From the NCBI GenBank assembly GCA_015272515.1, contig JACYLN010000141.1, positions 1 through 64,000 on the forward strand: 64,000 nucleotides of DNA. Reading direction: 5' to 3'. Position numbers and translations under genes: made by a program. The notes beneath the pieces were generated by a model. The model was not told where the DNA came from. It saw only the letters and a program-made list of their open reading frames with translations, and searched no databases. The stretch comes from Leptolyngbyaceae cyanobacterium C42_A2020_001 (GTDB taxonomy: Bacteria; Cyanobacteriota; Cyanobacteriia; Leptolyngbyales; Leptolyngbyaceae). The first letter of the stretch is position 1. Each line of letters starts with the position of its first letter. Below are positions 13,576 through 15,862 of the stretch, in pieces.

Positions 13576-13824
13576 GACAGTGACGATTCAGTTACCTTTA
13601 ACCCTGATCAAAATGCCAATCCTACACCCTGAGGAGGATTGTTTATTTCTTCATTTTCAGGTACAGCATGAGTTGTGTGTGTGTGAAATCAATGAATATT
13701 CTCTAGCGACAATGATGCCTTAATAAATCAGCGAAGACAATACAGAATCTGGGTGAGAAACAATCCATGCTTGACCCGAGCACCGCTCAAAGTTAGCATA
13801 GATATTAGTGATTTAGTATGAACC

Positions 13825-13902
13825 GTGATTCGTCAGCAGTTTCCTTTCAACTCTCTTCACAGCCTGCTGCTGGGGCTGCTGCTGCGCCTTGCGCGCAAAT
13901 AA
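13825..13902 (+). CDS. Putative leucine-rich leader peptide of leuA
   Basis: A 25-codon frame starting with GTG and ending TAA encodes a peptide with eight leucines, including LLLGLLL specified by six CTG codons around one GGG. It lies 260 bp upstream of a 2-isopropylmalate synthase on the same strand, which is where ribosome-mediated leucine attenuation would place a leader peptide. No strong Shine-Dalgarno sequence is visible. A competing frame starts at ATG 13818 and reads the same run as alanines (36 codons, ending 13928). The assignment rests on leucine content plus context; conservation has not been tested. Confidence 0.45.
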   Translation: MIRQQFPFNSLHSLLLGLLLRLARK

Positions 13903-14051
13903 TCTTCACACTACACACAAGTTTTTAGCATTTCGCCAGTTTGAGCATTCACGTTCATTCAGTTGCGTCTGAGTGCGATCGCTCAACGAAGCCGCTTTGC
14001 TCTTGCTAAGAAGCGCAAATTTAATCCAGTGGAATAGTCATCGAGAGTATA

Positions 14052-14080
14052 GATGGGTTACGGCTATCGCCTAACCCATC
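14052..14080. repeat. Perfect 9-bp inverted repeat with extended stem upstream of leuA
   Basis: GATGGGTTA and TAACCCATC flank an 11-base core, in which GGC and GCC can pair further, giving a 12-bp stem with one bulged C. It lies between the leucine-rich frame and leuA. The same 'GGATGGGTTA' palindrome type is dispersed in many cyanobacterial intergenic regions. No T-run follows, so it is not a classical intrinsic terminator, though it could still act as an attenuator structure. Confidence 0.6.
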
Positions 14081-14161
14081 CTACAAAACTCCCCCACACA
14101 CCATACCCCACACCCTATTCCCCCATTCCCCATTCCCGCATTTCAAAAGGAAAAACTAATC

Positions 14162-15862
14162 ATGTTGAAGCATCCTGCTGGTAAGTATCAACCGTTTGCA
14201 CCCGTGAATTTGTGCGATCGCACCTGGGTCAACCAAACCATTACCCAACCTCCGATCTGGCTCAGTACGGATTTGCGCGACGGCAACCAGGCATTGATTG
14301 AACCAATGAACGTTCAGCGCAAGTTGCAACTATTTCAAATGCTGGTCAAGCTTGGGTTTCAAGAAATTGAAGTGGCGTTTCCCTCTGCCTCCTCAACCGA
14401 TTTTGATTTTGTCCGGTTGTTGATTGAGCAGCAGTTGATCCCGGAAACCGTTACCATTCAGGTCTTGACCCAGGCACGGGAAGATTTGATCCGCCGCACG
14501 TTTGAGTCATTGCAAGGAGCGAAGCGGGCGATTGTACATGTTTATAACGCTACATCGCCGGTGTTTCGACGGGTGGTGTTTGGGCGCGATCGCCTCGGCA
14601 CCATTGATCTTGCTGTTTCTGCTGCCCGGTTGATCAAGCATCTGGCAGCCGAGCATCCCGAAACCGATTGGCACTTTCAGTATTCGCCCGAAACCTTCAC
14701 GGCAACTGAATTGGATTTTGCCAAAGATATTTGCGATGCGGTGACCGAGGTCTGGCAACCAACCCCGCACCATAAAGTGATTCTCAACTTGCCCGCCACG
14801 GTTGAAGTGGCAACGCCCAATATCTTTGCCGATCAGGTGGAATGGATGCATCGCCACCTGGCACGACGGGATAGTGTGATTATCAGCGTTCATCCCCACA
14901 ACGATCGCGGCTGTGCGATCGCGGCGGCTGAACTTGCCCAACTGGCAGGAGCCGAACGGATTGAAGGCTGTTTGTTTGGCAATGGCGAACGCACAGGCAA
15001 CGTGGATCTGGTGACGTTGGCGCTCAACCTCTACACGCAAGGCATCCATCCCGGATTGGATTTTTCGCAGATCAACGATGTTGCCAGAACCATTGAAGAT
15101 TGCACCCAACTGCCTATCCATCCCCGCCATCCTTACGTGGGTGACCTGGTATTCACTGCCTTTTCTGGCTCCCATCAAGACGCGATCAAAAAAGGGTTTG
15201 CGGTACAACAGCCCGATGCCTTGTGGGAGGTGCCCTATTTACCGCTTGATCCGGCAGATGTGGGGCGCACCTATGAGTCGGTGGTGCGGGTCAACAGCCA
15301 ATCGGGTAAGGGTGGAATTGCCTTTTTACTGGAGCGCGAGTGCGGGCTGGTATTACCCCGTCGCTTGCAGATTGAATTTAGCCAGGTGGTGCAGCAGGTG
15401 ATGGATGATCTGGGCAAAGAGTTGACCGCCCAGGATTTGTGGCGCTTGTTTGAGCAGGAATATTTGCAGGCAACGTCTCCCCTGAAATATGTTGAGCATC
15501 ACAGCTCAAAAGTGTTGGATGGAGACGCGATCGCGGTGACGCTGCAACTTCAGCAGCAACCGATTGTCATTCAGGGGCAGGGCAATGGCCCGATTGATGC
15601 CTTTATCCATGCGTTGGGACTGACTATTCGAGTTCACCAATACGAGGAGCGATCGCTGGAACAGGGCAGTAACGCCAAAGCGGTTGCCTTTGTGGAATTG
15701 GTCGCTGAGTTTGCCCAAAGTCCGCTGCATGGCGTTGGCATTCACACCAACATTGTTACAGCCTCGATTCTGGCAGTCCTTAGCGCCATCAATCGCGGTT
15801 TGCAGAAAATGGCTCAATCCCAGCAAGTCCAGGTACTCCAACCTTTGACAAAGATGAAGTAA
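14162..15862 (+). CDS. leuA: 2-isopropylmalate synthase (actinobacterial/fungal type)
   Basis: LeuA condenses acetyl-CoA with 2-oxoisovalerate, the first committed step of leucine synthesis. The 566-residue protein shows the catalytic TIM-barrel pattern [15 protein letters not shown] near residue 36, [31 protein letters not shown] (metal-binding His pair) and [12 protein letters not shown], then [13 protein letters not shown] and VNSQSGKGG. The last ~110 residues form the leucine-binding regulatory domain. These strings match the long LeuA type of Mycobacterium and yeast rather than the enteric type. ATG 14162 follows an AAGGA motif ten bases upstream. Upstream lie a leucine-rich mini-ORF and a hairpin, so attenuation is possible. 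No other leu gene is nearby. Confidence 0.93.

What the first reader, a model, noticed from the sequence alone, without database searches (positions are those of the whole stretch)
13825..13902. Leucine-rich mini-ORF upstream of leuA: possible attenuation leader
Seen: a 25-codon GTG-TAA frame, eight leucines of 25 residues, with CTG CTG CTG GGG CTG CTG CTG in the middle, lies 260 bp upstream of leuA on the same strand and is followed by a 12-bp hairpin (14052-14080). Known: leader peptides rich in the end-product amino acid control leu genes in enterics and actinobacteria by ribosome stalling. Inference: leucine attenuation of leuA in a cyanobacterium. Weak points: no Shine-Dalgarno, no terminator T-run, and an ATG frame that reads the run as Ala.
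Basis: partly seen in the sequence, partly recalled or inferred. Interest (0 to 1): 0.7.

Follow-up and report, generated by a model that had tools for sequence, protein, structure and literature searches.

The report
Leucine leader peptide before cyanobacterial leuA
A tiny leucine-rich reading frame in front of a leucine-synthesis gene in this cyanobacterium is real and conserved in front of the same gene in almost every related cyanobacterium that carries it and in several proteobacteria, so it is very probably a leucine sensor that controls the gene, a kind of control that published surveys had not reliably found in cyanobacteria.

Summary
The mini-ORF (13825-13902) is real. It is homologous to a leader found upstream of the orthologous leuA in 57 of 58 cyanobacterial genomes with usable upstream sequence, and in several beta/gammaproteobacteria. 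The Leu frame is open in 47/47 distinct sequences with synonymous Leu-codon changes; the rival Ala frame is closed in 36/47. A motif from its end hits 28 of 390 genomes, once each, always at a leuA. A sigma70-like promoter precedes it in most loci, window included. The ORF's last codons form a short hairpin, more stable than synonymous recodings, kept when the peptide end changes, and usually followed by a T-run; in the window that T-run is degraded.

No downstream terminator or antiterminator could be shown.

Conclusion: a leucine leader peptide acting in cis on a second, proteobacterial-type leuA, most likely by attenuation; the switching step is inferred. Many relatives carry a second leader with a pseudoknot-like RNA next to leuA, resembling the actinobacterial LEU element; the window lacks it. 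New variant of a known kind.

The parts
13771..13799 (+). Predicted sigma70-like promoter TTGACC-17-TAGCAT; predicted transcription start near 13806
   Evidence: a TTGAC[C/G]-17/18-TANNAT match at about the same distance (mostly 98-128 nt before the ORF stop) in most leuA loci; best score >=9/12 in 87% of 39 loci against 15% in shuffled sequence. Start site not measured.
13825..13902 (+). Leucine leader ORF (25 codons, GTG start, no SD), here called ORF1
   Evidence: homologous ORF in 57 of 58 usable cyanobacterial genomes; Leu frame open in 47/47 distinct blocks.
13864..13890 (+). Control codons: CTG CTG CTG GGG CTG CTG CTG CGC CTT (LLLGLLLRL)
   Evidence: Leu columns keep Leu through CTG/CTA/CTT/CTC/TTA/TTG changes.
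13834..13881 (+). Possible hairpin A: CAGCAGTTTC (13834-13843, Gln-Gln codons) with GGGGCTGCTG (13872-13881, Leu run)
   Evidence: this pairing is stronger than in shuffled 5' halves on average (17.1 against 14.5), weak per locus (3 of 31 at p<0.05).
13883..13897 (+). Hairpin B overlapping the last codons: TGCGC-CTTGC-GCGCA
   Evidence: hairpin kept with compensatory forms (TGCGCC/GGCGCA, TGCCC/GGGCA, GCTGCC/GGCAGT, TGCGGC/GCCGCA); more stable than synonymous recodings in 36 of 37 distinct cases (window z -1.39, p 0.09).
13919..13926 (+). AAGTTTTT, a second T-run 17-24 nt after the ORF stop, recurrent in relatives at similar spacing
   Evidence: similar T-run at about 18-30 nt after the stop in roughly half of the non-Leptolyngbya-type loci; function unknown.
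14162..15862 (+). leuA, 2-isopropylmalate synthase of the TIGR00970/PRK03739 type, 566 aa; the presumed target
   Evidence: a separate leuA_bact-type paralogue (TIGR00973, 800 bits) lies on another contig.

Best explanation
The ORF is a leucine leader peptide (a cyanobacterial leuL) at the 5' end of the leuA transcript, acting in cis on leuA according to the supply of charged leucyl-tRNA. Shown by sequence: a promoter-like site upstream of the ORF; selection for a Leu-rich peptide read in one frame; a short hairpin made by the last Leu/Arg codons and the bases next to the stop codon, usually followed by a T-run in relatives; linkage to this leuA only. Inferred: ribosomes that stall on the Leu run when leucine is short sit on the 5' arm of the hairpin, keep it open and let RNA polymerase go on into leuA; when leucine is plentiful the ribosome leaves, the hairpin forms behind the polymerase, and transcription pauses or ends. 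The weakest inferred step is how the hairpin alone gives the right sign: simple geometry says a ribosome close behind the polymerase also masks the hairpin, and no antiterminator partner was found. The confidence given is for a leucine leader that controls leuA in cis; for the exact switching step it would be about 0.4.
For: Homologous ORF upstream of the orthologous leuA in 57 of 58 usable genomes from many families. Motif specificity: 28 of 390 genomes, one hit each, all at leuA, one of them a broken leuA copy. Frame and synonymous Leu codons conserved. Hairpin selected beyond codon needs. T-run of 4 or more within 15 nt after the stop in 62% of loci against 11% of control windows. Conserved promoter-like site just upstream. 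The same leader occurs in front of leuA in beta/gammaproteobacteria; the cyanobacterial LeuA form one group in a LeuA tree, next to a proteobacterial MAG sequence that also has the leader.
Against: No terminator/antiterminator pair between ORF1 and leuA could be shown. The T-run after the hairpin is degraded in the window (TAATCTTCAC). No SD sequence. Transcription, translation and leucine response are untested. A hairpin that overlaps the ORF does not by simple kinetics give higher expression on starvation.
Confidence: 0.72

Rival explanations
1. In this particular genome the leader is a decaying remnant: the leader system works in relatives, but here the T-run after the hairpin is degraded, the second leader/pseudoknot element has been lost, and repeats fill the spacer.
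For: Window tail is TAATCTTCAC instead of TAATTTTTT; element 2 is not found in the window although the same-genus relative G001 has a comparable stretch (read by eye); dispersed repeat in the spacer.
Against: Promoter-like site, start position (QQ at codons 4-5), open frame, Leu run and five of six hairpin pairs are kept; the second T-run AAGTTTTT is kept.
Confidence: 0.15
2. The ORF acts after transcription: a stalled or terminating ribosome changes mRNA stability, or the short terminated transcript or its peptide acts in trans, instead of controlling transcription termination in cis.
For: No conserved antiterminator or downstream structure; variable distance to leuA, about 135 to 840 nt; the T-run after the hairpin is not universal, for example Zoogloea.
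Against: Strict linkage to leuA and conserved position just behind the promoter-like site fit action in cis on transcription.
Confidence: 0.1
3. The conserved feature is only the hairpin plus T-run, an ordinary terminator-like element or pause site; the Leu-rich frame is a by-product of CTG-rich hairpin sequence.
For: The hairpin is kept even where the last residues change.
Against: Leu codons upstream of the hairpin vary synonymously and the frame is open in 47/47 while the other frames are closed in 36/47 and 15/47.
Confidence: 0.02
4. Chance Leu-rich ORF, or the overlapping ATG frame with an Ala run is the real one.
For: The ATG frame exists in the window (13818-13928).
Against: Conservation in 57 of 58 genomes; the Ala frame has stops in 36/47 relatives.
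Confidence: 0.01

Closest known systems
Leader-peptide transcription attenuators of amino acid operons (trp, his, leu, ilv of Enterobacteria; Leu-rich attenuator peptide of Staphylococcus ilvD, PMC5794164)
   Same: Short ORF with a run of codons for the end-product amino acid at the start of the transcript; hairpin overlapping the control codons.
   Different: No separate downstream terminator and antiterminator could be shown; the only recurrent terminator-like hairpin is built from the ORF's own last codons; no SD.
ilvB leaders of Actinobacteria (PMC1262725: short ORFs with Ile/Val/Leu codon runs overlapping candidate terminator hairpins followed by poly-U) and the ilvB-II uORF of Corynebacterium (PMC10272879)
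   Same: Codon run overlapping, or next to, a hairpin followed by a U-run.
   Different: Different gene (leuA), different phylum, unrelated sequence; an antiterminator is proposed for ilvB-II but was not found here.
Actinobacterial LEU element upstream of leuA (PMC1262725)
   Same: Leu-run ORF before leuA; element 2 of relatives also has a pseudoknot-like fold next to leuA.
   Different: The window lacks element 2; in relatives the base stem pairing the Leu run with the leuA ribosome-binding site is not enriched.

Membership tests
Ribosome-mediated amino-acid transcription attenuator | Short conserved coding ORF rich in codons for the end product, upstream of its biosynthetic gene | tested here: met
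Ribosome-mediated amino-acid transcription attenuator | Promoter upstream of the ORF, so that the ORF lies at the transcript's 5' end | tested here: inconclusive
   Consensus promoter-like site in most loci including the window, but no transcription start measured
Ribosome-mediated amino-acid transcription attenuator | Intrinsic terminator between the control codons and the gene | tested here: inconclusive
   Hairpin plus T-run at the ORF end in most relatives; in the window the T-run is degraded; a 5-6 nt spacer separates hairpin and T-run, so it may be a pause hairpin
Ribosome-mediated amino-acid transcription attenuator | Antiterminator that competes with the terminator | tested here: not met
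   the hairpin arm and the Leu run show no more complementarity to the next 100 nt than shuffled sequence
Ribosome-mediated amino-acid transcription attenuator | Expression rises on starvation for that amino acid | not testable with these tools
   Needs an experiment
Actinobacterial LEU element | Leader ORF with Leu run before leuA | tested here: met
Actinobacterial LEU element | Conserved pseudoknot between the leader ORF and the leuA start | tested here: not met
   Not found in the window; a pseudoknot-like element is present in many relatives (element 2)
Actinobacterial LEU element | Base stem pairing the Leu run with the leuA ribosome-binding site | tested here: not met
   element 2 loci: 27% with 5 or more contiguous pairs against 29% shuffled
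Any Rfam leader or riboswitch family | Match above gathering score | tested here: not met
   whole window; 20 related loci; permissive threshold, nothing relevant

The most novel reading that the evidence does not exclude
A single-hairpin leucine attenuator: the leader ORF's own last codons are the terminator or pause hairpin, no antiterminator exists, and the position of the ribosome alone decides. In many relatives it is stacked in tandem with a second leucine leader carrying a pseudoknot that overlaps the leuA start, so that one gene is gated twice by leucine, once in transcription and once in translation; the module is shared by cyanobacteria and proteobacteria.
Probability: 0.3. Interest if true: 0.78.

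Novelty: new variant of a known kind. Interest (0 to 1): 0.62.

Why it matters
[quoted passage not shown] This locus gives a strongly conserved, easily tested example, linked to a patchily distributed second isopropylmalate synthase whose closest relatives outside the phylum are proteobacterial. It also makes a mechanistic question testable: how a leader works when its terminator-like hairpin lies inside the ORF and no antiterminator is seen. The literature check covers open-access papers only; surveys in subscription journals (2004 on proteobacteria, 2010 on bacteria in general, both cited in PMC4833913 or known to me) could not be read.

Tried and rejected
A classical 3:4 terminator downstream of ORF1: none recurrent. 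Antiterminator pairing of the hairpin arm or the Leu run with downstream sequence, or of the hairpin arm with the 5' UTR: no enrichment; a GGGCGCAA/UUGCGCCC match exists in some Leptolyngbya-type leaders only. Rfam matches: none. The Leu-rich frame at 13973-14074 (LLLLRSAN) was considered as a degenerate second leader and not pursued: it does not resemble element 2. A strict peptide pattern in 386 phylum genomes gave only 2 hits because the last residues vary; the relaxed DNA pattern gave 28 in 390 class genomes. An ncbifam call with a bad third reference failed and was repeated without it.

Full report
Observation. The downstream gene is a 2-isopropylmalate synthase of the leuA_yeast/PRK03739 type. 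The same genome has another, leuA_bact-type (TIGR00973) isopropylmalate synthase elsewhere, so this leuA is a second copy, found in 63 of 390 class genomes and in only 2 of 42 genomes of its own family.

Conservation. I collected leuA upstream regions from 60 cyanobacterial genomes by whole-genome search, seven named cyanobacterial records from the species collection (three of them the same as genomes already in the set), and 73 proteobacterial records. Two cyanobacterial genomes have too little upstream sequence. Of the other 58, 57 have a homologous Leu-rich mini-ORF, on the same strand, about 135-840 nt upstream of leuA. The one without it (G053) has the most divergent leuA (54% identity). 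The consensus is roughly M-x-x-QQ-LSL-x-x-x-x-SLLLGLGLLLRLGRK/N-stop; the window has MIRQQFPFNSLHSLLLGLLLRLARK.

Coding signal. In 47 distinct 12-codon blocks the Leu frame never contains a stop, the frame that would read Ala in the window has a stop in 36, and the third frame in 15. Leu columns change among CTG, CTA, CTT, CTC, TTA and TTG. The pattern CTGCTGCGCYTKGSGCGCAAMTAA hits 28 of 390 genomes once each, with no hits of the reversed control; 27 are the leuA loci already known, and the last sits before a broken leuA copy in G574.

Anatomy. A TTGAC[C/G]-17/18-TANNAT promoter-like site lies mostly 98-128 nt before the ORF stop (best score of 9 or more in 87% of 39 loci, 15% after shuffling). 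In the window it is TTGACC-17-TAGCAT at 13771-13799, so the ORF would begin about 20 nt into the transcript. An SD-like 4-mer precedes the ORF in 2 of 54 loci. The last codons form a small hairpin, typically TGCGCC-TTG-GGCGCA, with the stop codon just after it or, in some loci, in its loop. It survives changes of the peptide end through other base pairs: TGCCC/GGGCA, TGCGC/GCGCA, GCTGCC/GGCAGT, TGCGGC/GCCGCA. Native codons make it more stable than synonymous recodings in 36 of 37 distinct cases, median z -1.88, p below 0.05 in 18 (the cases are related, so this is not 37 independent tests). The 15 nt after the stop hold a T-run of 4 or more in 62% of loci against 11% of control windows. In the window the hairpin keeps five pairs, but the T-run has decayed to TAATCTTCAC. 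A second T-run, AAGTTTTT, recurs about 18-30 nt after the stop, window included.

What is absent. No other terminator-like site recurs between the ORF and leuA, and neither the hairpin's 3' arm nor the Leu run is more complementary to the next 100 nt than shuffled sequence. No Rfam family matches.

Origin. In a tree of 109 LeuA proteins the 36 cyanobacterial rows form one group (SH-aLRT 97, quick method, midpoint root), next to a proteobacterial MAG sequence (L091) which itself has a leader ending LGLLLRLARS. Related leaders with the same layout occur in Methylobacillus, Cognatazoarcus, Denitromonas, Zoogloea, Alkanindiges and Acinetobacter records. So the gene and its leader appear to have travelled or descended together; the direction was not determined.

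Second element in relatives. Many cyanobacterial and betaproteobacterial loci carry, just before leuA, another Leu-rich ORF, often with an SD sequence, that runs into a strong helix (GGGUUGUCAGG...CCUGACAGCCC or GGUUGCCGGGC...GUCCGGCAGCC) and in many cyanobacteria ends overlapping the leuA start. A motif in the helix loop (GUGGC) matches a downstream GCCAC, with changed but still complementary versions such as UGCGAC/GUCGCA and UGGCAU/AUGCCA; 71% of 48 loci have 5 or more contiguous pairs against 35% after shuffling, a modest signal because the best match was not always the conserved one. It resembles the actinobacterial LEU element (PMC1262725), but the base stem of that element is not seen. 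The window lacks it.

Mechanism. The conserved unit common to all is promoter-like site, Leu ORF, hairpin at its end, usually T-run. I therefore favour control at the end of ORF1: leucine shortage holds a ribosome on the Leu run and on the 5' arm of the hairpin. I mark this as inference. The known difficulty is that a fast ribosome close behind the polymerase would mask the hairpin too; the sign depends on pausing and timing that sequence cannot show. Overlap of a codon run with a terminator hairpin has been described for actinobacterial ilvB (PMC1262725), where the mode of regulation was reported as unclear.

Verdict. A real leucine leader, conserved and specific; probably an attenuator of a non-classical layout; function in this exact genome is likely but weakened by the degraded T-run.

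Noticed in passing
L053, L081, L082, L165, L139, L135, L134 and others, last ~50-190 nt before leuA: A second conserved element right before leuA in many cyanobacteria and betaproteobacteria: Leu-rich ORF, strong 10-13 bp helix, loop GUGGC complementary to a downstream GCCAC with compensatory variants (pseudoknot-like); not in Rfam; resembles the actinobacterial LEU element. Absent from the window.
   Followed up: partly
window 14053-14084: ATGGGTTACGGCTATCGCCTAACCCATCCTAC is a dispersed inverted repeat: 3 pattern copies in this genome and many diverged copies in relatives; the C-rich stretch that follows (about 14088-14139) also has similar copies elsewhere.
   Followed up: partly
L063-L074, L076, L078, L161-L164, L184, L055, just after the ORF stop: In the Leptolyngbya-type group the leader is followed by a conserved AAANAAAGGCGAAATGCCCTGAATAG with a small covarying hairpin (GGCG/CGCC, GGCC/GGCC, GGCA/TGCC); role unknown.
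   Followed up: partly
L200 (G574): An intact leader ORF in front of a broken copy of leuA, a natural case of the leader outlasting its gene.
   Followed up: no
window 13919-13926 and relatives: AAGTTTTT recurs about 18-30 nt after the leader stop in many loci without a hairpin in front of it; possibly a polymerase pause site.
   Followed up: partly
54 leader ORFs: The leader start codons almost never have an SD-like sequence (2 of 54), whereas the second leader ORF (element 2) often has one.
   Followed up: no
L085, L170: Two leaders (Calothrix sp. NIES-4101, G141) have lost the hairpin end of the ORF although the N-terminal Leu-rich part is kept; they may be decaying.
   Followed up: no
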